In this document: piece by piece, positions 50,524 through 64,000 of the stretch
How the letters are laid out: each line of letters begins with the position of its first letter
Position numbering within the stretch: the first letter of the stretch is position 1
Source: Sporomusaceae bacterium
GTDB taxonomy: Bacteria; Bacillota; Negativicutes; UBA1444
NCBI GenBank assembly: GCA_018434355.1
Contig: JAHDPL010000020.1
Location: 62,001-126,000 of the forward strand
Reading direction: 5' to 3'
Length of the DNA: 64,000 nucleotides
Made by a program: the position numbers and the translations under genes
Notes under the pieces: model-generated
Databases searched by the model: none
What the model saw: the letters and a program-made list of their open reading frames with translations, nothing else
What the model was told of the DNA's origin: nothing

Positions 50524-50745
50524 TGAAACAAGCCTCATTTCCTTAAAATTCGTAAACGTTCTCGGAACATTTGCCGCCAAAACAAACTATTGGTAATTTT
50601 ATCAAATTTTCGCTCCAGTTACAATTCTTCCGCACTTTCCGTGTGTTGTGGCAACTAAAGTTTTTGACAACGGCAGGAACGGGGTATGGGGTGCAGAATT
50701 AAACAGGGGTAAAGGGAAATCCACCCTCGGGATAGGAGGATGAAC

Positions 50746-53346
50746 ATGTCCGGCGAATATCAAATCGACCAGTTCCGGCCCAGTGACGCAGCCGGTGTCG
50801 TCGCGCTTTACCGGAATGTTTACGGCGAGGAATATCCCGTGAAGAGCGTCTATGACCCGGCCTCACTCATCCGCCAAACCGAGACCGGCGAAACGTATCG
50901 GGCCGTGGTCCGCAACAGCGCAGGCGAAGTTGTAGGGCATTTCGCGCTGTATCGGTCGTCGCCGCCCAATCCGGAACTGTACGAAGGCGGTCAGATGATG
51001 ATGCGACATGACAGCCGGGCGTCTGACGCGGCGTACCGCCTGTTTGTTTTTTCCATGGAGCAATTGCCCCGTATTTATAGCATCCGCCACACCTGGGGCG
51101 AGGCGGTTTGCAACCATCTGATGACGCAGCAGATGTGCCTTGAGATTGGCGCGGTGGAAACCGGCATCGAAGTCGGGCTGATGGCGGGCGAAGCCTATGC
51201 AAAAGCCCTGTCTGAAGTTTCCAGCGATACGGAACGAATTTCCAGCCTGCTGATGTTCCGCAGCAGCGAGCCCCGGACCCAGGCCCTCTATTCCCCTGCC
51301 GTTTACGAAGCAGCGTTGCGTTTCATCTATGCAAAATTGCCGGATACCACCAGCTTCCTGCCCTCTACGGCAGCACTGCCTACTGGGGTAAAAACCCGTG
51401 GCAGCAGCCAGATATTTGGCGTCGGCGGGGTGGCCCGCATTCAGTTTGAAGTGTTGGGTGAGGATTTTGAAGCCTGCCTGGCACATTGTATCGTCCAGGC
51501 TTCCATCGCCGGCGCTCTTGTCATCCAAGTCGCCTTCCGCCTGACAGAGCCGGCTTGCGGGGCGGCGGTCACGATCCTGCGGCGACACGGTTTTTTCCTT
51601 GGCGGTGCTTTGCCTCGCTGGTTCGGCGATGACGGTCTGTTGATGCAACAGGTGATAAGACCGCCAGATTTTGACAAGATTTTTCTGGCTTCGAAACGGG
51701 CCCGCGAATTGGGGCGAATCATCCGCGAGGACTGGGAAGCCACCCGCAATCGCAGCTTGGGCGAACTGATTGGGAACCGTGCAATCGAGCAAGGTGAAAA
51801 GACCGCTCTCATCTGGCCGGAACGAAACCAGAGCCAAACCTATGCCGATGTGGAGCGTGAATCGGAGCGTATGGCGCGGGCGCTGTGCGCGGCCGGCATC
51901 GCCAAAAGCGATCATGTGGCGATCTGGGCGCCAAATGTACCGGAGTATTTTACTGTCGCGTTTGGCTGCGCAAAAATCGGTGCAACGCTGGTGATGCTTA
52001 ATCCCAGCTATCGGAAATATGACCTTGAATATGCGCTGAAGCAATCGGAAGCAAAACTCTTGTTCCTGGTCGACGGCTACGCCGCCCCCGGCGAATTTGC
52101 GGAAATCCTGCGACAAGTGCGGAGCACTCTGCCCAGTCTCACGCAGGCCGTTTTGATCGGCAACGCGTCCTACGGCGATATTGCGAACTGGGACGATTTT
52201 CTGGCCCGGGGGCTGTTGGCGGAAGAAGCGGCACTTGCTGCGCGAAAGCGTGAAGTCACCGGCGACCACATTTTCAGCATCCAGTACACTTCGGGGACGA
52301 CCAACGTGCCCAAAGGCGTCATGCTGAGCCAAAACGCATACTTGTCAAGTTTTGTGGCCACCTGCAACAGGGAAGGCCTCCGGTCGACCGATGTATTGTG
52401 CATGCCGCTACCGCTGTTCCATGTATACGGGTTCAGCGAGGTTGCCTCAATCCTGCGGATCGGCGGTAGCGCGGTCGTGCTGGAACGGTTCCGGTCGCTG
52501 GATTTTCTGGCTGCGCTGGAAAAATACCGGGTGAGCTTCGTTAACGGAGTTCCGACCATGTTCGTCGCTGCGCTGGCAGTGATGGAGCAGCGCTCCTATG
52601 ATCTTCGGTCTATGCGCGGCGGCAATATCGGTGGCGCTTTTTGCCCGCCGGAGCTTGTCGGGCGTATCAGCGAAAAAATGTCGGCGCCGGAACTCGGCGT
52701 GCTTTATGGGTCTACTGAAGCGCTCGCCGTCCTTATCTCGTCGCCGCTGGCGCCGCTTGAAGCGCGAAAAGGAAATGCCGGTCCGCCGCTGCAGGGAATC
52801 TCCCTGCGGATTGTTGACCCGGCGACCGGCGAAACGGTTCCAGTTGGCGGGCAAGGCGAGCTTTGTGTGAAGGGCCCTTCACTGATGCGGGGCTATTATC
52901 GGATGCCGGCAGAGACCGCCAAAGTGTTTGATGCTGAGGGTTGGTACCATACCGGCGATCTGGCCAGCGTCGACGCCGAGGGATGTTGCAAAATCGGCGG
53001 ACGGGTCAATGACATGCTGATCCGTGGCGGCGAAAACATCTCACCGAGCGAAATCGAAGAATTTCTGTTGAATCACCCGAAGCTGCAAGATGCCCAAGTG
53101 GTCGGCGTGCACTCCGAATATTACGGCGATGAAGTGATCGCCTTCGTTCGCCTAAAACCCGGTGACACTGCCGAGGTGGTGGAACTGAAGCGGTATTGCC
53201 GGCAAAATATTGCCATCTACAAGGTGCCGGACTACTTTTTCTTTGTCGAGGAGTTCCCGCTGACGTCTAGTGGCAAAGTCCAGAAATTCAAACTGCGGGA
53301 GCTGGCCGCGCAACTTTTGGCGGAACTGGCGAATAAGCCACAATAA
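50746..53346 (+). CDS. GNAT-like N-terminal domain fused to acyl-CoA/acyl-acid synthetase
   Basis: 866 residues from ATG 50746 (AGGAGG 6 bases upstream; ATG 50740 touches it). Residues 1-335 look like acetyltransferase (GNAT-type) repeats: IDQFRPSDAAGVVALYRNVYG, RAVVRNSAGEVVGHFALY, AAVTILRRHGFFLGGALPRW. Residues 340-866 are a complete ANL synthetase: YTSGTTNVPKGVMLS (about 512), VLYGSTEA, YHTGDLASVDAEG, VNDMLIRGGENISPSEIEE and the catalytic Lys in SSGKVQKFKL. An acyl carrier protein follows 29 bases later, so the activated acyl chain is probably loaded on it. The acyl substrate is unknown. Confidence 0.85.
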   Translation: MSGEYQIDQFRPSDAAGVVALYRNVYGEEYPVKSVYDPASLIRQTETGETYRAVVRNSAGEVVGHFALYRSSPPNPELYEGGQMMMRHDSRASDAAYRLFVFSMEQLPRIYSIRHTWGEAVCNHLMTQQMCLEIGAVETGIEVGLMAGEAYAKALSEVSSDTERISSLLMFRSSEPRTQALYSPAVYEAALRFIYAKLPDTTSFLPSTAALPTGVKTRGSSQIFGVGGVARIQFEVLGEDFEACLAHCIVQASIAGALVIQVAFRLTEPACGAAVTILRRHGFFLGGALPRWFGDDGLLMQQVIRPPDFDKIFLASKRARELGRIIREDWEATRNRSLGELIGNRAIEQGEKTALIWPERNQSQTYADVERESERMARALCAAGIAKSDHVAIWAPNVPEYFTVAFGCAKIGATLVMLNPSYRKYDLEYALKQSEAKLLFLVDGYAAPGEFAEILRQVRSTLPSLTQAVLIGNASYGDIANWDDFLARGLLAEEAALAARKREVTGDHIFSIQYTSGTTNVPKGVMLSQNAYLSSFVATCNREGLRSTDVLCMPLPLFHVYGFSEVASILRIGGSAVVLERFRSLDFLAALEKYRVSFVNGVPTMFVAALAVMEQRSYDLRSMRGGNIGGAFCPPELVGRISEKMSAPELGVLYGSTEALAVLISSPLAPLEARKGNAGPPLQGISLRIVDPATGETVPVGGQGELCVKGPSLMRGYYRMPAETAKVFDAEGWYHTGDLASVDAEGCCKIGGRVNDMLIRGGENISPSEIEEFLLNHPKLQDAQVVGVHSEYYGDEVIAFVRLKPGDTAEVVELKRYCRQNIAIYKVPDYFFFVEEFPLTSSGKVQKFKLRELAAQLLAELANKPQ

Positions 53347-53879: not shown

Positions 53880-54218
53880 ATGACGGGAATCGATCTGAAG
53901 CAGGAAGTCATGCGGGTGAACAACAATGTCAATATCACCATGTTCGGCACCGGACTGCGCAAGCAACGCGTTTCGATCACGGAGGACAAGATTGTGATCT
54001 CCGCCGACCACAAACGGATTCCGGCCCTGGCTGCGCTGGACGGCATCGACCGGACGACGACCCGGTTTGTCGATGTGGCGATTCTGGACGAATATAAAAG
54101 GCGCTTAAAAAAGGAACTGATTGAACAGATCAAACTGCCAGTCAAAAGCGTTTTAAAGGACTATGACCCGGAGCATGAGCTGGCGATCACGGTCATTGTG
54201 TTGACCGCGCCAATGTGA
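53880..54218 (+). CDS. DUF2294 (MpsC-like) domain protein
   Basis: 112 residues. It has the DUF2294 pattern: MRVNNNVNITMFGTGLRKQRVSI, DKIVISADHKRIP, YKRRLKKELIEQIKLPVKSVL, AITVIVLTAP. The family is linked to Na+-translocating Mps systems in staphylococci, but most members are uncharacterised. GGGAGG is spaced 9 bases before the ATG. The terminator region after it is not clear. Confidence 0.6.
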   Translation: MTGIDLKQEVMRVNNNVNITMFGTGLRKQRVSITEDKIVISADHKRIPALAALDGIDRTTTRFVDVAILDEYKRRLKKELIEQIKLPVKSVLKDYDPEHELAITVIVLTAPM

Positions 54219-54566: not shown

Positions 54567-55577
54567 ATGGCAACCGGTTATGACGTCCTGCAAGCCCTAG
54601 ACAAAATCACCGGCGGAAGATGCGTCAAGGATCTCGGCGACATCTTCAGCGGCAAAAACCGTTTCGTAGTCATCAAGTCTTCCAATATCCCCGGCAAAAG
54701 CTGCATGGAAACCCCTGGCCTGGTCTGCGGCAAACTCGAGTCTCCCGTCAAAAAAATCGCCGTAACCATGACGCTGACCGAATGCAATATCGAACTGGCC
54801 GGCGCGACCTGCGTCGATGCGATCGTGGCCCACCATCCGATCGTGGAAGCAGCCAATTCGGGTGGCGTCACGCTAAGGACGTATCTCGATCTCTACGGCT
54901 TATCGGCGTTCGAACTGCACGAGGCGTTTCACGGCCTCCATCCCGGCATCGCCCTGCTCCATGGCCACAAAACCTTTCATGTCGATATCGCCTACGGCGG
55001 CATTCCCGGCAACATTCTGTTCGTTGGCCGGGCCCTGGATGGAGTAAGCACGCTCGGCGACATCCTGAAGCGCTTGCAGGATTTCATGGGTCTGAATGAA
55101 GAACAGGCCATGCTGCTAGCGGAACGCAATTCGCGCTGCTGCAACGGCATCATGGAAACCAATGTCGCCACCGGCGGCAAAATCCTGGTTGGCACTCCCG
55201 ACAGCAAAATCTCCACCATCATCCACATTTTCCCCCATACCGGGTTTACAGCCGACCACCTGGCCGCCGTCAAAAATAAGTTCCCCGAAGCCGACACAGT
55301 GCTGGCTTCGATCAGCCGGGTCAAAGACGACCATCCCCTCGTCGCCAAAGCCCGCGAACTGGGCCTGAACTTCATCGTCGGCAATTCGCATGCGATGGAA
55401 ATTTTGGAAAACGGCATGCCGCTGGCGATAGCGCTGCAAACGTTGCTACCGGACACCGAAGTCGTCCTGTTCCGCGAACGGATCACCTCCACCCCGCTCG
55501 ATCAGGTAGGAACTCCTGCTCTGCGTGAATATGCCCGCGACATCGCGGACCGGTTCCTGGTTGCCAAACCCAATTAA
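54567..55577 (+). CDS. NIF3-like dinuclear metal-centre protein
   Basis: 336 residues. The motif VDAIVAHHPIVE (H89-H90) is the NIF3 metal site; further segments HEAFHGLHPGIALLHGH and NFIVGNSHAMEILENG fit the second half. NIF3 proteins bind two metals and have hydrolase-like features but unproved roles. It heads a unit with a gate-type membrane protein and lies upstream of the B12 enzyme cluster. GGGAGGG is spaced before the ATG. Confidence 0.72.
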   Translation: MATGYDVLQALDKITGGRCVKDLGDIFSGKNRFVVIKSSNIPGKSCMETPGLVCGKLESPVKKIAVTMTLTECNIELAGATCVDAIVAHHPIVEAANSGGVTLRTYLDLYGLSAFELHEAFHGLHPGIALLHGHKTFHVDIAYGGIPGNILFVGRALDGVSTLGDILKRLQDFMGLNEEQAMLLAERNSRCCNGIMETNVATGGKILVGTPDSKISTIIHIFPHTGFTADHLAAVKNKFPEADTVLASISRVKDDHPLVAKARELGLNFIVGNSHAMEILENGMPLAIALQTLLPDTEVVLFRERITSTPLDQVGTPALREYARDIADRFLVAKPN

Positions 55578-55596
55578 TGAAGGAGGCATAAGAATC

Positions 55597-56688
55597 ATGA
55601 ACAATGGAGTGGAGCAAAAAGCCGCCCGCGCCAAAAGACCCCTGACCACCGCCGAATATGTTGGTTTTGTTCTGGTTGCCTTGTCACTGGGAGCTTTGTT
55701 CTGGTATCCGGGGCCGGTGGCCGGCGCATTTACCGCCGCCGCGAAAAAGGTCCAATCGATCGCCTTTAATGCGTTCATCAGCGGCATGGTCGGCTGGGCG
55801 ATCATCTGCAGCGTCATCACCGGCAGGCTGCTGGAACGGGCCGGCTTTACCGACGCCCTGATCCGTATTTTCGTGCCGATTACCCGTTGGATCGGTGTCA
55901 ACCCGGCGGTAGTCATCCCTGGCATTTACAATATTCTTGGCGACATCAACGCCGCTGGCCGCATCACCGGACCGGTGCTGAAGCAAGCCAACGCCACCCG
56001 CGACGAACAAAAAATCGCCATTTGCACTATGGTTCAGTCGCAGCAATCGTTTTCCACATTCATGCTAGGCATCGTTTGTCTGACTGCCGCCAAGGTCAGC
56101 GTGTTTCCGGTCATCGTCATCGGTTTGTTTTTGCCGTTGATCGTAATGCCCTTTTTGTTGAAACATACGATTTACCGCGACACCAAAGCGGTTGAGCTGG
56201 AAGAACTGCCCCGCTACACGCCGGATACGTCCTGGCTGCCGGTATTGTTCGGCGCAGCCAAGGAAGGCGCCGAAGTTCTCTTCCTCATCGTCATCCCGGC
56301 CACCGCCGCTGTGTTCGGCATTATCGGCGCCTTGGAATATGCAGGCATCTGGCAATATATCCATAACGCGCTCACCGCTCTGCTCAATTTCTTTTCCATC
56401 GATATGGAAACCGGCATGGTCTCGATCCTGGCCTCACCCACTCTGGCCATGGGCATGCTGACCAAAACAGCGGGAGCGCTGCCGCCCAAACTGGTTGTCG
56501 GCTCTTTCATTCTGGCCTCTTCCGGGTTACCGCTGGGTGTAGTGTTCGGACAAATCCCGATGATCTGGAAAGGTGTCTCCGATCTGGACGAAACCGAAGC
56601 GGTAAAAGCCGCCGTACTGGGAATTGTCCTGCGCATTCTCACCGCTTTCCTGATTGCCGAATTCCTTACCCCGTTTATTATGAAATAA
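55597..56688 (+). CDS. Membrane protein with nucleoside-recognition (gate) domain
   Basis: 363 residues from ATG 55597 (AAGGAGG 8 bases upstream). About 8-9 helices. The gate-domain pattern is seen in AFISGMVGWAIICSVITGRLLERAGFTDALIRIF and GVNPAVVIPGIYNILGDIN-like stretches, then a second half with VLFLIVIPATAAVFGIIGAL. It resembles clostridial nucleoside-recognition-type membrane proteins and would be the transporter of the B12/PLP cluster. Substrate unknown. Confidence 0.72.
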   Translation: MNNGVEQKAARAKRPLTTAEYVGFVLVALSLGALFWYPGPVAGAFTAAAKKVQSIAFNAFISGMVGWAIICSVITGRLLERAGFTDALIRIFVPITRWIGVNPAVVIPGIYNILGDINAAGRITGPVLKQANATRDEQKIAICTMVQSQQSFSTFMLGIVCLTAAKVSVFPVIVIGLFLPLIVMPFLLKHTIYRDTKAVELEELPRYTPDTSWLPVLFGAAKEGAEVLFLIVIPATAAVFGIIGALEYAGIWQYIHNALTALLNFFSIDMETGMVSILASPTLAMGMLTKTAGALPPKLVVGSFILASSGLPLGVVFGQIPMIWKGVSDLDETEAVKAAVLGIVLRILTAFLIAEFLTPFIMK

Positions 56689-56702
56689 AAACCCCCGATT
56701 GC

Positions 56703-56732
56703 GCGGGGGAGCCCCTCCCCCGCTTGTTTTCT
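56703..56732 (+). terminator. Terminator between the transporter and the B12 enzyme genes
   Basis: GCGGGGGAG (56703-56711) pairs with CTCCCCCGC (56715-56723), a 3-base CCC loop, followed by TTGTTTT. It splits the cluster into two expression units or gives partial read-through. Confidence 0.85.
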
Positions 56733-56799
56733 CAATCAGGCGCTAACTTGCTTTGTCGTCAATCATCAAAGATGAGCGATATTTCCTGGAGGTGATTCC

Positions 56800-57039
56800 A
56801 TGAGTCAGTCACTGGAAAAAGTCATGGATGCCGTAGACGTGGAAACGTTGTTGGTTTGCGACTCGGAAGCCGAGGGCCGCAGTTTGATGCTCGATATCCT
56901 GAAAGGATTTGGCTTTACCGACGTTGATGTCGTGTTTGCCCAGTTTGAGGGTCCCGGCGTGCGGATTCGCGGCAGAGCCTATGTGCATCGCCCGGCTGAC
57001 AAATATCACTGGCTGCAGCAAGCCGGGAAAGCGGGGTGA
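56800..57039 (+). CDS. Small (79-aa) protein paired with the B12 enzyme
   Basis: I do not recognise a family. The sequence has DAVDVETLLVCDSEAEGRSL, a LDILKGFGFTDVDVVFAQ segment and a short basic C-terminus. Only 4 bases separate its stop from the B12-domain gene, whose ribosome-binding site lies in its end, so the two are coupled. A role as a small subunit or chaperone of the mutase, comparable to small subunits of aminomutases, is an inference. GGAGGTG precedes the ATG. Confidence 0.55.
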   Translation: MSQSLEKVMDAVDVETLLVCDSEAEGRSLMLDILKGFGFTDVDVVFAQFEGPGVRIRGRAYVHRPADKYHWLQQAGKAG

Positions 57040-57043
57040 TTCC

Positions 57044-58867
57044 ATGCGCAAAATCTTGTTGGCGCCGCTGGACCCTGTGCATGACATCGGCTTGAAAATG
57101 ATTGCGCGCGGCCTCTTTGACGCAGGCTATGAAACGCACCTGCTGCCGCCGGACCTGACGACAGAGGAGATTATCGAGCAGACGTTGCAATTTCATCCTG
57201 CGGTGCTGCTGCTCAGTCGAACGCTCGGTTACGGCGTGGCGGAAAACCTGGCCCGCATGGTGGACCTGGCTGACGCCGCCGGGCTACGCGACCACATGAA
57301 AATCGGCGTCGGCGGCATGGCGATCCGCAGCGAACTGGCCGCAGAACTTGGGTTTGACGCCGGCTTTGGTCAGGGAACCAGCATCGAACAGGTGATCTGT
57401 TTTATTGAAGGAACCGAGTACAACCCGGAAGTGCAACGCAGTGGCAAAACAAAACGCAACCTCACCGACGGCTATGATTATGCCTGGCGTCATGCCGGCA
57501 TCGCCGCCAAAGTCGACCGGATTACCGACCAAATCATCGATTGGGCAGTCCAGCGGACTTCCCCAGGCGTCGAGCGGGCCAAACTGCGCGATGCTGCCTG
57601 GGATGTCGACCTCTGGCGGGCCCGCATGGGCGTCGGCGACTTTTACAAACACTACGCGCCGCTATGCGGCGAACTGCCGATGAACTTCTACGGCGGCGGG
57701 CAGCTGCACCCAAAAACCCGCCGTTTCAGTCAGCAGGAAGTCGACGGACTAGAACAGTATCTGACCGAGACCAAACTGCGCATGTCGGTCCAGTCCTTGC
57801 GACACAAACGCCCGGGACCCTTGGTGTTCAACCAGTACGGCACCGGCTGCCCATTCATGGATATCGGTCATATCCTGGCTAGCGAAGCTTGGGGCGCAGA
57901 CGGCGTCATCCACTTCGACCCTTCCTGGGGCGCCAGAACCGAAGGCTTGCTGGACGGATTCCTCACTCATCAGGAAGACGGCACCGTCATCACTCCGGCC
58001 AACCTGAACCGGATTCAGCGGGCGCTCGAACCCTCCACGCTCTGGCAAGTTCGGGCGCACCGGGGGCTCAACACACCGGAAACCGTGGTTCTGGCCGGAA
58101 AAATCGGCGCTGATCTCAGCAAAATCAACATCTGCTATGGCTCGCTGGCTGCCGGAACCGATCCGGCCCGCATGACGGTCGACGGCTACCATGCCATCCT
58201 GTACGCCAAACAATACGGCATGCCGTTTGATGTCGTAACCAACGAAGAACTTTCCGGCGTGCCGGCGCACAAAGCCTTTGCCGGCATGCTGATCGTGGCC
58301 GGCCTGGCCCGGAAGCTGGGAGCTCGACCGATTTTGCAGCCGTTGTTCGCCTGTTCGCCGGAAGTCATGGTCAACGGGCTGATGGAAGATAACTACATCG
58401 ACTTCAATGCGGCCAAGGTCATCGCCCTGCGGTCCATTTTGAACGCGCCGCTCTGGCCGGGCGCGCCGGTCGGCTTTTTGACCCACACCGAAGACCGGGT
58501 GCAGTCGGCGATGACCACTTCGCTGCACGCCTGTCTGGCGGCTACCCTCAACGTGGACGCCGTTTCCATCGCGTCCACTGACGAGGCCTATTCCGGCGGC
58601 CCAATCTCCGCCCCCGCCAAAATCGACACCCTACGCGCCGTCCAGGAGGGTTTCCGGTTCTTTGGCCGGGCCGGCATCGCCCCGACCGACCAGGCGCAGG
58701 TCTTTGCCGACCAATTGGTGGACGGCATCGAAAAAACCTTGACCCAGGTACTCGCCTGCGGCGATTTTGTCGCCGCCCTGCACGCCGGCTGTCTCGGCTC
58801 CCGCGAAGAAGGCGCCCATCCCGGCCGTGCCGGCAAAGATAGCGTGAAGTCCAAAACTACAATATAA
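57044..58867 (+). CDS. B12-binding, mutase-like enzyme (N-terminal Rossmann, C-terminal TIM-barrel type)
   Basis: 607 residues from ATG 57044 (GGGGTGAT 3 bases upstream). Residues 1-125 are a cobalamin-binding Rossmann domain with LDPVHDIGLKMIARGLFDAG (H13; HDIG is kept but the Asp is one residue further away than in the usual D-x-H-x2-G). Residues 240-590 resemble the catalytic barrel of glutamate-mutase-like enzymes (GTGCPFMDIGHILASEAWGAD, SWGARTEGLLDGF, CYGSLAAGTDPARMTVDGYHAI, STDEAYSGGPISAPAK). B12 on the N-terminus of the barrel chain differs from the separate-subunit layout of glutamate mutase. Substrate unknown. Confidence 0.68.
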   Translation: MRKILLAPLDPVHDIGLKMIARGLFDAGYETHLLPPDLTTEEIIEQTLQFHPAVLLLSRTLGYGVAENLARMVDLADAAGLRDHMKIGVGGMAIRSELAAELGFDAGFGQGTSIEQVICFIEGTEYNPEVQRSGKTKRNLTDGYDYAWRHAGIAAKVDRITDQIIDWAVQRTSPGVERAKLRDAAWDVDLWRARMGVGDFYKHYAPLCGELPMNFYGGGQLHPKTRRFSQQEVDGLEQYLTETKLRMSVQSLRHKRPGPLVFNQYGTGCPFMDIGHILASEAWGADGVIHFDPSWGARTEGLLDGFLTHQEDGTVITPANLNRIQRALEPSTLWQVRAHRGLNTPETVVLAGKIGADLSKINICYGSLAAGTDPARMTVDGYHAILYAKQYGMPFDVVTNEELSGVPAHKAFAGMLIVAGLARKLGARPILQPLFACSPEVMVNGLMEDNYIDFNAAKVIALRSILNAPLWPGAPVGFLTHTEDRVQSAMTTSLHACLAATLNVDAVSIASTDEAYSGGPISAPAKIDTLRAVQEGFRFFGRAGIAPTDQAQVFADQLVDGIEKTLTQVLACGDFVAALHAGCLGSREEGAHPGRAGKDSVKSKTTI

Positions 58868-58882
58868 AGGGAGGAAACACCA

Positions 58883-60346
58883 ATGAAACCCAACTACAAA
58901 TTCGAAATGTACCGTCAACTGCAACAGAACATCCCTGCCCTGTACGCCGAAGCCAAAGCGGCGGCGGAAGAGATCGTGCCGAAGGAACTTAAAGGCAAGT
59001 TTGGCCTGACTGGCGCCATCTCCGGCTGCCCTGCCCCGCTGCGCGACGACATCATGAAAGCCGGCGAAGACGGCGCCAAAGAAGTCATCCCCCTGGCCAA
59101 GCTGGTCGATGAAATCCGCGAACTGGTCAAGAGCGTCTACGGTGACGAATATGACGCCGCACCGACTTCTACCTGCGAAGCCGGACTGTGGGTCACCTTC
59201 GACAGCCTGTTCAGCCCGCCGATGATGGGCCGTGGCGACAGCTATCGCTCCCGTTATATCGCCCCTTATGAAAAACATATGCACCATCAGGCCAGTTACG
59301 GCCGGCCGGTGCCGCCGCGTTACAAGGACATCTACGCCGACCGTGGCTCGACCGCCGGCGAACTCGGCTTCTATGGCAAACGCCAGAACAATCTGGACAC
59401 GGTCATCGTGCCGCTGGTTGGCGCCAACTATGATGTACACGGCATCAAATATCATCCGGTTCCCCTGCTCACCGGCGTCGACCCCGAACAATCCAAACTG
59501 GCGCTGGCCAAACAGGCGGCGATCCATGCACCGATGCTGGCCGGCTTTACCTCGCTCGGCTATGAAACCCCCGGTTATGGCTACGCCAAAAAAGACACCG
59601 AAGGCACGCCGCTGTTGCAGAAATATATCGGCGAAATCGCCCGCGACTACAATGTTCCCTATGTGATCGACAACGCCTGGGGTCTGCCGTTTGTCGGCTG
59701 CAACCCGATCAAATCCGGCGCCGACGTGATCATCTACAGCATGGACAAAGCGACCGGCGCGGCGACCAGTGGCCTGATCATCGGCAAAGAAGAGTGCATG
59801 GTGCCGATCCGGCGCGCTCTTGGCATGCACGGCGATCGTTACGGCACCACCGCCTCCTACGGCAAAGCGGCCTATGTCACGTTTGACGCCGGCAAAGAAG
59901 CGCTGTTGACCCAGATCCAGGCGTTGAAAGTGCTGCGCGACCAGCCGGAAATCCTGACCGCCCCGGTCGATGCGCTGGAAAAAATCGTCCGCGAAGAGTT
60001 CGCCAAGATCAATCTGCCGAAACGGCTCAAAGACGGCCTGCTGATCAGCAAGTCCTACAATTCGACCGCCGTGGAAGTCAACTACGAAGCCACCTGGGCC
60101 AATGGCGAAATGGGACTGCCGATCTTCTCGATCGAAGACATGTACGCTGGTTCCAACATCCTGCAGACCGGCATGGCCCAGATGGGCGTCATCCCAACCG
60201 TCGCCTACGACGGCAACATCTATATCTCGCCCGGCCTCGGCACCTGCGACAGCAATGGGCAAATCATCGACGCGGCCATGCGCCCGGCGATCCGCGCCTT
60301 GGTCAAGCTGATCGAAATCACCGCCAAATATGCGGGCCTGCTCTAA
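58883..60346 (+). CDS. Fold-type I PLP-dependent enzyme of the B12 cluster
   Basis: 487 residues. The Schiff-base Lys is probably K289 in IIYSMDKATGAATSGLIIG, preceded by a PLP-binding VPYVIDNAWGLP with the conserved Asp. GYETPGYGY and YGTTASYGKAAYVTFD are further landmarks. It is not a standard aminotransferase; the nearest fold relatives are beta-eliminating or Sep/Sec-tRNA-synthase-type enzymes. In the pathway it could act on an amino intermediate before or after the mutase. GGGAGG is spaced before the ATG. Confidence 0.72.
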   Translation: MKPNYKFEMYRQLQQNIPALYAEAKAAAEEIVPKELKGKFGLTGAISGCPAPLRDDIMKAGEDGAKEVIPLAKLVDEIRELVKSVYGDEYDAAPTSTCEAGLWVTFDSLFSPPMMGRGDSYRSRYIAPYEKHMHHQASYGRPVPPRYKDIYADRGSTAGELGFYGKRQNNLDTVIVPLVGANYDVHGIKYHPVPLLTGVDPEQSKLALAKQAAIHAPMLAGFTSLGYETPGYGYAKKDTEGTPLLQKYIGEIARDYNVPYVIDNAWGLPFVGCNPIKSGADVIIYSMDKATGAATSGLIIGKEECMVPIRRALGMHGDRYGTTASYGKAAYVTFDAGKEALLTQIQALKVLRDQPEILTAPVDALEKIVREEFAKINLPKRLKDGLLISKSYNSTAVEVNYEATWANGEMGLPIFSIEDMYAGSNILQTGMAQMGVIPTVAYDGNIYISPGLGTCDSNGQIIDAAMRPAIRALVKLIEITAKYAGLL

Positions 60347-60371
60347 CTAGCGGCAAGAGGAGGTTTTGGGC

Positions 60372-61286
60372 ATGTCGTCGAATGACCCTTATAAAGCAGG
60401 CAAATTCAGCAAAAACCCCTACGCTTTGAAAAGCGATGTCATCGGCCAGTTGGTTGTGACGCTGGACGGACGCATGGAAAACCGCGGACTATCGCTCATC
60501 ACGCCGCCGTCCCGCTGCGTCTGCCGTCACCAGGTTCACGAACTGATCCTGACTGATGAGCCGACAGCCATGCCGGGCCGGCAAGTCGACCGAATCGGCT
60601 ACCTCGGCTTCTTCAGCGTAGAGGCTGGCGGCGTAATCCTGCGGGGCGACGCGGTCTGGCTGGACGAGCAGTGCATCGGCGCGGTCGCCGGCTTTGACGA
60701 AACACACATGCCCAACCACCTCAATATCGTAATCGCCACCGACAAGCTGACAACCGGCGTGGAGATCGGCGCTCGGCCCGGGGCCCGGCTGCAGTTCTCC
60801 CTGCCGCAAGCAAAGGAGGAACAACGAATGACACCCGAAGCAAAACTCAAAGAACTGCAAATCGAACTGCCGGTGCCGGCCACACCGCTGGCCGCCTATG
60901 TTCCCGTGGTCGTAGCCGAAGGCTGGGCCTATACCTCGGGCCAGATTCCCCTCGTCGACGGCAAACTGGCGTTTCAGGGAAAAGTCGGTGGCCCGGTTGA
61001 CGAAAAGGCCGGCTATGAAGCGGCCCGCATCTGCGTGATCAATTGCCTGGCGGCGCTAAAGGCCGCACTGGGCAGTCTGGACCGGATTGAAAGAGTGGTC
61101 AAGGTCGTCGGCTTCGTCAACAGCGCCAGCGGCTTCACCGCCCAGCCCAAAGTGATCAATGGCGCTTCCGAGCTGCTGGTGCAGGTGTTCGGCGACGCCG
61201 GCAAACATGCCCGGTCGGCGGTCGGTGTGGCCGAATTGCCGCTGGACGCTGCTTGCGAAGTGGAACTGGTCGTCAAATTGAAATAA
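60372..61286 (+). CDS. Unknown domain fused in frame to a RidA-type domain
   Basis: 304 residues from ATG 60372 (GAGGAGG upstream). Residues 1-150 form an unrecognised domain (RGLSLITPPSRCVCRHQVHE, RVDRIGYLGFFSVEAGG, MPNHLNIVIATDKLTTG). Residues 153-304 are a RidA/YjgF domain (YTSGQIPLVDGKLAFQGKVG, NCLAALKAALGSLDRIE). No stop separates them. A strong ribosome-binding site lies just before the internal ATG 60828, so the frame may be a recent fusion or encode both a fusion and a free RidA. RidA enzymes hydrolyse reactive enamine/imine intermediates made by PLP enzymes, a fitting role here. Confidence 0.72.
   Translation: MSSNDPYKAGKFSKNPYALKSDVIGQLVVTLDGRMENRGLSLITPPSRCVCRHQVHELILTDEPTAMPGRQVDRIGYLGFFSVEAGGVILRGDAVWLDEQCIGAVAGFDETHMPNHLNIVIATDKLTTGVEIGARPGARLQFSLPQAKEEQRMTPEAKLKELQIELPVPATPLAAYVPVVVAEGWAYTSGQIPLVDGKLAFQGKVGGPVDEKAGYEAARICVINCLAALKAALGSLDRIERVVKVVGFVNSASGFTAQPKVINGASELLVQVFGDAGKHARSAVGVAELPLDAACEVELVVKLK
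60812..60830 (+). promoter_or_regulatory. Internal ribosome-binding site and start of the RidA part
   Basis: AAAGGAGGA (60812-60820), 7 bases before ATG 60828. It is a better site than most in the window and would give a 152-residue RidA from inside the fused frame. Confidence 0.65.
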
Positions 61287-61301
61287 AGGAGCACACGAAA
61301 G

Positions 61302-62594
61302 ATGAGCAAGGTTGTTGTTGTTGTTGGCGGAGGTTGGTCCGGCTGCTCCGCCGCCCTGGAAGCGAAAAAAGCCGGCTGCGATGTGGAACTGTTTGAGCGG
61401 ACCGATATGCTACTGGGAACCGGCCTGGTTGGCGGCATCATGCGCAACAATGGCCGCTATACCGTCACCGAGGAAATGCTGGCGATGGGCGGCGGCGATC
61501 TGTTTCGCGTCGCCGATGCGCAGGCCCGTCATACCAACATCGAGTTTCCCGGCCACAAGCATGCCAATTTATATGATGTGTCACGCATCGAACCGGCAGT
61601 GCGAGACGTACTGCTGTCGGCCGGCGTCAAACTGCATCTGTCCAGCCGGTTCAAAGACCTGACTCTCAACCAAAACGCCGTCAGTTCGGTCGTGTTTGAT
61701 GAATACCACGGCAAATCCGACGAGCGGATCGAAGCGGACGTGTTCGTCGATACCACCGGCACCGCCGGTCCGATGGGAAACTGCAGCAAATACGGCAACG
61801 GTTGCGCGATGTGCGTGCTACGCTGCCCGACGTTCGGCCCTCGGGTCAGCCTATGCGGCAAAGCCGGTGCGGCCGAGATCATGGGCATGAAGGAAGACGG
61901 TTCGTTCGGCGCAATGAGCGGGTCCTGCAAACTGCACAAAGACTCCCTCAGCGAAGCGATCCAACAGCAGCTGGACCAAACCGGCGTGGTCGTGATCCCG
62001 ATTCCGCAGGCATTGCAGAAGAGCTTGGAATCGTTGGGGCAAAAAGCCTGCCAACAGTATGCGCTGAAAGAGTTCGCCGAAAATATCATTTTGCTCGATA
62101 CCGGCCATGCCAAACTGATGTCTTCCTATTATCCGCTGCACATTTTGCGGCAGATTCCCGGCTGCGAGAATGCCCGGTTCGAAGACCCCTACTCCGGCGG
62201 CATCGGCAACTCGATGCGCTATCTGGCTCTGGCGCCGCGCGACAACTGCATGAAGGTGGAAGGCCTTGCCAATGTGTTCTGCGGCGGCGAAAAAGCTGGT
62301 CTGTTGGTCGGCCACACCGAAGCGATCATCACCGGCAGTCTGGCTGGGCGCAACGCCGCCCGCTTCGCCCAAGGCAAATCGGTCGATGCAATCCCGACCT
62401 CGCTGGCCTGCGGCTTCGGTATCGCCTATGTGCGGAAAAGCATGCAAACCGAAGCCGGTCTGAAAAAGAAATATACATTCTCCGGTTCCGTGTTATTTGA
62501 TAAAATGAAGGAAAGCAACCTGTATTCAACCGATATCGGCGAAATTGGCCAACGCGTCGCAGCCGCAGGCATGAGCGGTTTTTTTGCCAGTTAA
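61302..62594 (+). CDS. FAD-dependent oxidoreductase with cysteine cluster
   Basis: 430 residues. N-terminal dinucleotide motif VVGGGWSGCSAALEAKKAG; a C-terminal FAD segment (GLANVFCGGEKAGLLVGHTEAIITGSLAGRN-type) closes the fold, similar to GidA/TrmFO and anaerobic FAD dehydrogenases. Residues 162-176 hold C-x6-C-x2-C-x3-C (CSKYGNGCAMCVLRC), which could ligate an iron-sulfur cluster. No membrane helix. It would carry out a redox step in the B12/PLP pathway. AAAGGAGC precedes the ATG. Confidence 0.75.
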   Translation: MSKVVVVVGGGWSGCSAALEAKKAGCDVELFERTDMLLGTGLVGGIMRNNGRYTVTEEMLAMGGGDLFRVADAQARHTNIEFPGHKHANLYDVSRIEPAVRDVLLSAGVKLHLSSRFKDLTLNQNAVSSVVFDEYHGKSDERIEADVFVDTTGTAGPMGNCSKYGNGCAMCVLRCPTFGPRVSLCGKAGAAEIMGMKEDGSFGAMSGSCKLHKDSLSEAIQQQLDQTGVVVIPIPQALQKSLESLGQKACQQYALKEFAENIILLDTGHAKLMSSYYPLHILRQIPGCENARFEDPYSGGIGNSMRYLALAPRDNCMKVEGLANVFCGGEKAGLLVGHTEAIITGSLAGRNAARFAQGKSVDAIPTSLACGFGIAYVRKSMQTEAGLKKKYTFSGSVLFDKMKESNLYSTDIGEIGQRVAAAGMSGFFAS

Positions 62595-62629
62595 TCGCGT
62601 CAACGTACCATGAAAGAAAAGGAGCCGCT

Positions 62630-63349
62630 ATGCTAAACGAAAAAGAAGCTGTGGAAAAGGAATTGTTGCTTCTGTTGCGCGACTCAGCCCAACCGGCCGG
62701 CTGCGGCTCCTTGTGCGCCGCGTTGCAGGCGCGAGGCTTTCGAATCAGCGAAGCCACAACCGGCAGGTTGCTACGCGATTTCGACCTGCAATCCTATACG
62801 GAAAAAGCCGGCTACCAAGGGCGCTGTTTATCGATCACGGGAGAAGCGAGATTGCAGTCGCTGTTAAAACTCGAAAGCCGTCACAAGTGGCGTGAAGAGC
62901 TGACCCAGGCTGTGCAGGGTCGCACCAAGGATGAGCTGTTGGAGGTCTTGGTCGCCCGTGATGCGATTGAAGGGGCGATTGCCGCGCTCGCCGCGCAAAA
63001 AGCGACGCCTGCCGACGTGCTTGCCCTGACCAATATCCTCAGTCGCCAGCAACTGATGGCTCAGACCGAGCAAGTCGCGGCGGACGAGGACGTGACCTTT
63101 CACGAGGAGTTGGCCCGGATTGCCGGCAACAAAATCCTGCGCGCTTCGATCGGCCTGATCCGCCAGGACCACCAGCTGTCACCGGTCCTGGAAACGATTC
63201 GTCGCAAAGTCGGCAGCAAGATCCATATCGATCATCAACGGATTGTCGACGCGATTGCCGCGCATGAGCCCGAGACGGCCAGAGCAGCCATGCACCACCA
63301 CATCAACGGCCTGATCCATGATGTCGAAAAATACTGGGACGAATCCTAA
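62630..63349 (+). CDS. FCD-domain regulator with atypical N-terminal winged helix
   Basis: 239 residues. The C-terminal 130 residues are an FCD ligand domain (EVLVARDAIEGAIAALAAQ, DEDVTFHEELARIAGN with Asp and His ligands, IDHQRIVDAIAAHEPETARAAMHHHI). The N-terminus is not GntR-like; LLLRDSAQPAGCGSLCAALQ and FRISEATTGRLLRDFDLQSY resemble the winged helix of RNase R/NrpR (HTH_12). It probably senses a carboxylate or metal-bound ligand and regulates the cluster it ends. Confidence 0.7.
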   Translation: MLNEKEAVEKELLLLLRDSAQPAGCGSLCAALQARGFRISEATTGRLLRDFDLQSYTEKAGYQGRCLSITGEARLQSLLKLESRHKWREELTQAVQGRTKDELLEVLVARDAIEGAIAALAAQKATPADVLALTNILSRQQLMAQTEQVAADEDVTFHEELARIAGNKILRASIGLIRQDHQLSPVLETIRRKVGSKIHIDHQRIVDAIAAHEPETARAAMHHHINGLIHDVEKYWDES

Positions 63350-63366
63350 CTCGTCGAGGCATACGA

Positions 63367-64000
63367 TTGCTGGAGTATACGTTAGGCATCGCCGGCACTG
63401 CCAAAAACACCGGCAAAACAACCACGACCAATGCGATCCTCGCTTGCCTGCGCAAACGGGGAATCGCCGTCTTTTTGTCTAGTATCGGTTATGACGGAGA
63501 AAACCTGGACAATGTCACCGGCCTGCCCAAACCGAAAATTCCGATGGAACCGGGCGATATCGTGGCTACCGCCGCTCGATGTCTGGATGCCGGCTCGGCG
63601 CAATATGAGCGGATAAGCGAAACAAACATCCATACCCCGCTGGGGCGGGTGCAACTGGTGCGGATCACGACGCCGGGCCTGGTGGTAACCGCCGGTCCCA
63701 ATAAAAGTTCCGAAACCCGGCGGCTGATTTCGCTGTTTCGCGAGATCAGCCCCGGGGTCATTTTGCTGGACGGCGCACTAAACCGGCTGGCGCCGATGGT
63801 GGAAGCCGATGGTCTGGTGTTTGCCACCGGAGCGGCACTGACAACCGACCTCCCCCTGCTTGCCAGAGACACCGGCTACATCGAACAGGTCTTCCGATTG
63901 CCTTGTTTGGCGCCCGGACTGGCTGACGAAAACCCGCAGACAATCTGCCTGTATGACGCCGCAGGCTATCGCACGGAACAATTGCCTGCCTCCTCGCTGT
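63367..64000 (+). CDS. P-loop protein of the B12 cluster, 5' part
   Basis: The frame opens at TTG 63367 (GAGG 8 bases upstream) and runs off the right edge after 211 codons. The N-terminus has a P-loop GTAKNTGKTTTTNAIL and later VILLDGALNRLAP, a possible Walker B/metal region. It looks like an ATP/GTP-binding auxiliary protein. In B12-dependent aminomutase loci such proteins reactivate the enzyme; that assignment is an inference from position and motif. Confidence 0.65.
   Translation, partial: MLEYTLGIAGTAKNTGKTTTTNAILACLRKRGIAVFLSSIGYDGENLDNVTGLPKPKIPMEPGDIVATAARCLDAGSAQYERISETNIHTPLGRVQLVRITTPGLVVTAGPNKSSETRRLISLFREISPGVILLDGALNRLAPMVEADGLVFATGAALTTDLPLLARDTGYIEQVFRLPCLAPGLADENPQTICLYDAAGYRTEQLPASSL

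What the first reader, a model, noticed from the sequence alone, without database searches (positions are those of the whole stretch)
54567..64000. Uncharacterised B12/PLP gene cluster with transporter, RidA, FAD enzyme, FCD regulator and P-loop protein
Nine genes in one direction: NIF3-like, gate-type transporter, 79-aa protein, B12-binding/TIM-barrel enzyme, fold-I PLP enzyme, unknown domain plus RidA, Cys-rich FAD enzyme, FCD regulator, P-loop protein. Known B12/PLP loci (lysine 5,6- and ornithine 4,5-aminomutase, glutamate mutase) do not have this composition: there the PLP is bound by the mutase itself and the B12 domain is often a separate subunit. The set suggests import and radical-based rearrangement of an amino acid or amine, imine clean-up by RidA, redox by the FAD enzyme and a reactivating NTPase.
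Basis: partly seen in the sequence, partly recalled or inferred. Interest (0 to 1): 0.85.

Follow-up and report, generated by a model that had tools for sequence, protein, structure and literature searches.

The report
PLP-less relative of B12 aminomutases
Several lineages of mostly anaerobic bacteria share an unstudied set of about seven genes built around a vitamin-B12 radical enzyme that resembles the lysine and ornithine aminomutases but has lost the vitamin-B6 binding site those enzymes use, so it probably runs a different, still unknown amino-acid breakdown route.

Summary
Nine same-strand genes run from 54567; the last, cut by the window edge, ends at 64443. The core is seven genes (56800-64443): 79-aa protein, 607-aa B12/TIM-barrel enzyme, 487-aa PLP enzyme, DUF6917-RidA, FAD enzyme, FCD regulator, KamB-type ATPase. 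NIF3 and the Gate transporter lie upstream of a terminator-like hairpin and are rarely conserved.

The core is co-conserved. In 151 genomes the 487-aa family and DUF6917 occur in the same 19; the full-length 607-aa family occurs in 18 of those. The 79-aa gene sits directly upstream of the 607-aa gene in all 44 loci where both could be read.

The 607-aa protein is a rearranged relative of lysine 5,6-/ornithine 4,5-aminomutase (B12 domain, then barrel). The 79-aa protein is probably their dimerisation domain as a separate gene. The cobalt-ligand His is invariant. The PLP-lysine segment is missing and seven PLP-contact positions invariant in KamD/OraE are replaced in 24 of 24 sequences; only the stacking Tyr remains.

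A PLP-assisted amino shift by the mutase is unlikely. The substrate is unknown; a diaminopimelate-like compound is a weak lead.

The parts
53880..54218 (+). 112-aa protein, family not searched; neighbour of NIF3-Gate in two other genera (peripheral)
   Evidence: family C50, sits before NIF3 and Gate in L092 (G039) and L097 (G063), next to the same B12 cluster
54567..55577 (+). NIF3/DUF34-like protein, 336 aa (peripheral)
   Evidence: PF01784 29.4 bits; found in only 3 of the loci including the window
55597..56688 (+). Gate-type membrane transporter, about 363 aa from the likely start (peripheral)
   Evidence: PF07670 below cut-off; AGGAGG just before ATG 55597; matched in only 2 other loci
56703..56723 (+). 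terminator-like hairpin separating NIF3-Gate from the core unit
   Evidence: 9 pairs, 8 G-C, T-rich tail; consensus match only
56800..57039 (+). 79-aa protein, probably a stand-alone aminomutase dimerisation domain (OAM_dimer-like)
   Evidence: 7 of 22 family members match PF16554 OAM_dimer, best E 0.0013, no other family recurs; hhalign to KamE/OraE dimer segments E 1e-4; directly upstream of the 607-aa gene in all 44 loci read
57044..58867 (+). 607-aa enzyme: N-terminal B12 domain (about 1-125) fused to a KamD/OraE-type TIM barrel, PLP site lost
   Evidence: PF02310; AF2 model pLDDT 83, best Foldseek hits KamD 1xrs_A E 6e-18 and OraE 3kow; residue mapping
58883..60346 (+). 487-aa fold-type-I PLP enzyme, SelA/SepCysS/Cap15/DgaE-like
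   Evidence: best PDB fold matches 8t7j, 3wkr, SelA, DgaE; K289 (SMDKA) and D263 conserved
60366..61286 (+). DUF6917 (about 20-144) fused to a RidA-type imine deaminase domain (about 159-304)
   Evidence: PF21891 165 bits, PF14588 93 bits; domain Arg133 (HAR) conserved; separate genes in many loci
61302..62594 (+). 430-aa FAD protein with conserved C161-x6-C168-x2-C171-x3-C175, possible Fe-S ligands
   Evidence: PF01134/PF12831; Cys conserved >=95% in 37 sequences
62630..63349 (+). FCD-type transcriptional regulator
   Evidence: PF07729 81.3 bits
63367..64000 (+). KamB-like P-loop reactivase, continues to 64443 in the contig
   Evidence: NF052386 198.5 bits full length (cut-off 210); GTAKNTGKT P-loop conserved

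Best explanation
The locus encodes an uncharacterised catabolic pathway for a polar amino acid. At its centre is an adenosylcobalamin-dependent radical mutase: the 607-aa protein with the 79-aa protein as its dimerisation module. It descends from the same family as lysine 5,6- and ornithine 4,5-aminomutase but no longer binds PLP in their way. It would bind its substrate directly through conserved Arg/His/Glu side chains and rearrange it without a PLP aldimine, for instance by moving a carbon fragment, in the way glutamate mutase works. The KamB-like ATPase would exchange damaged cobalamin. The separate fold-I PLP enzyme would deaminate the amino acid or eliminate a group from it, the RidA (with DUF6917) would hydrolyse the released enamine or imine to a keto acid and ammonia, the FAD/Cys protein would do a redox step, and the FCD regulator would sense the substrate. 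Shown: gene content, co-conservation, homology, loss of the PLP site. Inferred: AdoCbl chemistry, order of steps, catabolic role. Unknown: substrate and products.
For: Co-conservation: 487-aa family and DUF6917 in the same 19 of 151 genomes, 607-aa in 18 of those (the exception is 58% complete), across 9 families and 11 genera, with relatives lacking all three. Homology to KamD/OraE: Foldseek E 6e-18 and 8e-12, barrel hhalign E 1.3e-6 and B12 domain E 1e-10, C-terminal GxYPxRxG-type motif shared with OraE. Co-ligand His13 invariant. PLP site lost: the stretch that carries the PLP lysine in KamE/OraE is deleted in 24/24; KamD R184, G187, Q188, S189, Y236, S238, R268, all invariant in 8 KamD and 6 OraE, are replaced in 24/24 by D, W, G, A, A, R and A/G, while Y263 is kept as Y365 (residue roles from PMC3958899). 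Invariant charged barrel residues R298, R337, H339, R340, E401, E402. KamB relative in most loci. The own genome has a separate classical kamB-kamD-kamE locus, so this is not its lysine pathway.
Against: No biochemical or expression data. The alignment of the barrel to KamD is at low identity, and the model is of moderate confidence (two loops below pLDDT 50). Lys18 (five residues after His13) is invariant and could in principle bind PLP in another way, though methylmalonyl-CoA mutase has a Lys there without PLP (from memory, not tested). One 607-aa carrier, Paenibacillus P25, lacks the 487-aa protein. The carbon-fragment shift is one option among several; nothing here distinguishes it from an elimination.
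Confidence: 0.6

Rival explanations
1. The enzyme is still a PLP-dependent aminomutase: PLP is bound elsewhere (for instance by Lys18) or the substrate arrives with PLP from the 487-aa protein, and the reaction is a 1,2-amino shift as in OraE/KamDE.
For: closest relatives are aminomutases, the stacking Tyr263 is kept as Y365, a PLP protein and a KamB relative are usually nearby
Against: the PLP-lysine segment and the phosphate- and ring-binding positions tested are gone in 24 of 24 sequences
Confidence: 0.17
2. The pathway degrades a diaminodicarboxylate such as diaminopimelate (a cell-wall amino acid) or a near relative. This specifies the substrate and is compatible with the best explanation.
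For: in the Thermotogota locus a diaminopimelate dehydrogenase (296.8 bits, cut-off 180.6) and a DapF epimerase (241.5, cut-off 114.65) lie in the operon just before the 79-aa gene; in L047 a DapA-family gene follows kamB, with an oligopeptide/nickel-type ABC transporter; several conserved Arg in the barrel fit a poly-acid
Against: single loci; those DAP genes are the only full copies found in that genome, which also has LysA, so they may serve lysine synthesis; the DapA-family match is below cut-off; other loci have a D-cysteate sulfo-lyase or other transporters instead
Confidence: 0.15
3. The genes are a known amino-acid fermentation (lysine, ornithine or glutamate) with divergent enzymes.
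For: KamB relative and KamD/OraE homology
Against: no equivalog cut-off reached; classical KamBDE is present elsewhere in the same genome; no known partner enzymes of those pathways turned up among the neighbours scanned
Confidence: 0.06

Closest known systems
Lysine 5,6-aminomutase KamD/KamE (1xrs, 8t0v, 9q1a)
   Same: TIM barrel and B12 Rossmann domain homologous; Co-ligand His; Tyr263 kept; KamB-type reactivase gene
   Different: B12 domain fused in front of the barrel; dimerisation domain probably a separate 79-aa gene; PLP lysine and PLP phosphate/ring contacts lost; separate PLP, RidA, FAD genes
D-ornithine 4,5-aminomutase OraS/OraE (3kow)
   Same: barrel, C-terminal GxYPxRxG-type motif, B12 domain with GFGxG motif; small gene directly upstream
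   Different: domain order barrel-dimer-B12 in OraE versus B12-barrel here; the small gene is not OraS-like (hhalign E 0.19); PLP site lost
Glutamate mutase GlmE/GlmS (1cb7) and 2-methyleneglutarate mutase
   Same: AdoCbl carbon-skeleton mutases on acids without PLP; barrel fold match E 3e-9
   Different: PF06368 does not match the 607-aa protein; closer by fold to KamD
DgaE / SelA / SepCysS / Cap15 fold-I PLP enzymes
   Same: fold and active-site Lys region of the 487-aa protein
   Different: only about 15% identity; 487 aa with its own conserved regions; no curated cut-off reached

Membership tests
AdoCbl/PLP aminomutases (KamDE, OraSE) | homologous TIM barrel plus B12 domain | tested here: met
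AdoCbl/PLP aminomutases (KamDE, OraSE) | base-off/His-on cobalt-ligand histidine | tested here: met
   His13 invariant in 24 sequences, G16 nearly so
AdoCbl/PLP aminomutases (KamDE, OraSE) | PLP lysine in the B12 domain (K144 KamE, K629 OraE) | tested here: not met
   segment deleted in 24/24
AdoCbl/PLP aminomutases (KamDE, OraSE) | PLP phosphate/ring contacts R184, S189, Y236, S238, R268 | tested here: not met
   replaced in 24/24, invariant in 14 KamD/OraE
AdoCbl/PLP aminomutases (KamDE, OraSE) | dimerisation domain (PF16554) | tested here: inconclusive
   7 of 22 79-aa proteins match weakly, best E 0.0013; hhalign E 1e-4; the window's own member does not match alone
AdoCbl/PLP aminomutases (KamDE, OraSE) | amino-group migration activity | not testable with these tools
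   needs enzyme assay
Lysine 5,6-aminomutase reactivase KamB (NF052386) | curated cut-off of 210 bits | tested here: not met
   198.5 bits for the full protein: close relative, not an equivalog
Glutamate mutase (PF06368) | Met_asp_mut_E profile match | tested here: not met
   no match in the Pfam scan; only an Mgm-like protein matches weakly in the genome
RidA imine deaminase | profile match and conserved active-site Arg | tested here: met
   PF14588 93 bits; Arg133 of the domain conserved; deaminase activity not tested

The most novel reading that the evidence does not exclude
A third branch of the KamDE/OraSE family that runs AdoCbl radical chemistry without PLP on an unidentified amino acid, at the head of an undescribed fermentation pathway that also uses a new PLP enzyme family, DUF6917 and an FAD/Fe-S protein.
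Probability: 0.5. Interest if true: 0.75.

Novelty: new variant of a known kind. Interest (0 to 1): 0.6.

Why it matters
AdoCbl mutases are few, and the known aminomutase branch needs PLP. A natural relative with the PLP site removed, in a co-conserved gene set of many anaerobes, would show how the family changes chemistry and would lead to a new amino-acid degradation route. It also gives a first context for DUF6917 and for a PLP enzyme family without a curated name.

Tried and rejected
Reading the 607-aa protein as glutamate mutase or methylmalonyl-type: no profile match over cut-off. Reading the 79-aa protein as OraS: no profile similarity. Diaminopimelate as substrate: only two loci point there, and the DAP genes may be biosynthetic. 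D-cysteate: CuyA follows the cluster in four loci (two of them one genome region fetched twice) of one genus only. NIF3/Gate as core: not conserved. Literature: no paper holds DUF6917 and none relevant links aminomutase, RidA and cobalamin; searches gave nothing useful. A phylogenetic tree was considered and not done. The genes C22-C25 (homoserine dehydrogenase-, homoserine kinase-, ACT- and SpoIVA-like by eye) next to some clusters look like a shared chromosomal site.
Full report
Observation. The ORF list confirms nine same-strand genes from 54567. The window is G000:C46:62001-126000, and the parent contig shows that the last gene ends at 64443, 358 aa, followed after 100 bases by an ABC-type substrate-binding protein (by eye) that is not part of the conserved cluster. 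Family scans confirm NIF3, B12-binding, DUF6917 plus RidA, FAD, FCD and, for the P-loop protein, a KamB-like reactivase. A terminator-like hairpin at 56703-56723 lies between the Gate gene and the 79-aa gene, so the core unit is taken as 56800-64443; this is a consensus match only.

Conservation. The 607-aa protein was searched in 150 relatives and in one genome per species of GTDB r220. Twenty-seven loci came from named records: Sporomusa ovata, Pelosinus, Lucifera butyrica, Desulfosporosinus, Desulfotomaculum copahuensis, Desulfovirgula, Candidatus Formimonas, Paenibacillus P25, a Thermotogota MAG and others. Neighbourhood maps show the 79-aa gene directly before the 607-aa gene in every locus in which both were readable (44 loci, some of them the same genome fetched twice), with PLP, RidA, DUF6917, FAD, KamB and often FCD genes nearby in different orders. 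In the 151 genomes the 487-aa protein and DUF6917 occur in the identical 19 genomes (9 families, 11 genera); the full-length 607-aa protein occurs in 18 of them, the missing one being a 58%-complete genome. Two random sets of 19 would coincide with P about 1e-24; relatedness makes that figure too small, but close relatives that lack all of them argue for joint gain or loss. The Thermotogota genome that seemed to lack the PLP gene has it, with RidA and DUF6917, on the same contig. The Paenibacillus genome lacks it. NIF3 and Gate accompany the cluster in only two other genera. Instead a 460-aa membrane protein without any family match recurs.

The mutase. The AlphaFold2 model (pLDDT 83) is closest to KamD (1xrs_A, E 6e-18), then OraE, then glutamate mutase. 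Profile alignments support homology of both the B12 domain and the barrel. The domain order is B12 then barrel; in OraE it is barrel, dimer domain, B12, and in lysine 5,6-aminomutase KamD is the barrel and KamE is dimer plus B12 (own knowledge, consistent). The 79-aa proteins match OAM_dimer (PF16554) in 7 of 22 members, best E 0.0013, with no other family recurring; the window's own member does not match alone. hhalign against the KamE/OraE dimer segments gives E 1e-4. They do not resemble OraS. The 79-aa and 607-aa genes together therefore probably hold the whole catalytic core in a new arrangement.

Loss of the PLP site. In KamE and OraE the PLP lysine lies 11 residues after the cobalt-ligand histidine. 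In all 24 new sequences the segment that carries this lysine is absent, while the histidine and, in nearly all, the glycine three residues on are kept. Contacts listed for lysine 5,6-aminomutase in PMC3958899 were mapped on a joint alignment: R184, G187, Q188, S189, Y236, S238 and R268 are invariant in 8 KamD and 6 OraE and are replaced in 24 of 24 new sequences by D292, W295, G296, A297, A338, R340 and A/G370; the stacking Y263 is kept as Y365. N299 is replaced too, but it is not conserved in OraE in this alignment. The barrel also has invariant R298, R337, H339, R340, R376, E401 and E402, which would suit a poly-acid substrate; that is inference.

Partners. The 487-aa protein folds like SelA/SepCysS/Cap15/DgaE, keeps the presumed Schiff-base Lys289 and reaches no curated family. 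The RidA domain keeps its Arg. The FAD protein has a conserved C-x6-C-x2-C-x3-C, a possible Fe-S site. The KamB relative scores 198.5 bits against a cut-off of 210. The same genome carries a classical kamB-kamD-kamE locus at C36 and a gene resembling 2-methyleneglutarate mutase at C46:210k.

Substrate. No firm assignment. The Thermotogota operon includes diaminopimelate dehydrogenase and DapF, with TRAP transporter genes and D-amino-acid-dehydrogenase-like subunits; another locus has a DapA-family gene and an oligopeptide/nickel-type transporter after kamB. These are the only full DAP dehydrogenase and DapF copies found in that Thermotogota genome, which also has LysA, so a role in lysine synthesis is not excluded. 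Four loci of one genus carry a D-cysteate sulfo-lyase. A shared theme is amino acids with D centres and elimination or imine chemistry; this is a lead, not a result.

Verdict. A real, co-conserved, uncharacterised gene set around a PLP-site-less relative of the AdoCbl aminomutases.

Noticed in passing
G000:C36:66449-69900 (L064): The same genome has a classical lysine 5,6-aminomutase locus (KamB-like 363 aa, KamD 525 aa, KamE about 260 aa).
   Followed up: partly
G000:C46:210598-211395 and neighbours (L004, L065): A 616-aa barrel-B12 protein followed by a PrpF-like isomerase, which looks like 2-methyleneglutarate mutase and methylitaconate isomerase of nicotinate fermentation (by eye).
   Followed up: no
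L057:10001-11804 (Sporomusa ovata), also G126 (L028, L120): The mutase reading frame is split after about residue 256, between B12 domain plus linker and barrel; either a natural two-gene form like KamE/KamD or a frameshift.
   Followed up: no
L051/L115 (Thermotogota): Long operon with RidA, DUF6917, PLP, TRAP transporter genes, D-amino-acid-dehydrogenase-like subunits, a racemase-like protein, DAP dehydrogenase and DapF around the mutase genes.
   Followed up: partly
L057:11864-13243 and relatives: A 460-aa membrane protein, probably a transporter, recurs with the cluster but matches no Pfam or NCBIfam model.
   Followed up: partly
L108:8637-10116 (G130:C95): A second PLP plus RidA pair without a mutase gene nearby, next to homoserine-pathway-like genes.
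   Followed up: no
window 50740-53346: An 868-aa acetyltransferase-like plus AMP-ligase-like fusion followed by an 83-aa carrier-protein-like ORF (by eye).
   Followed up: no
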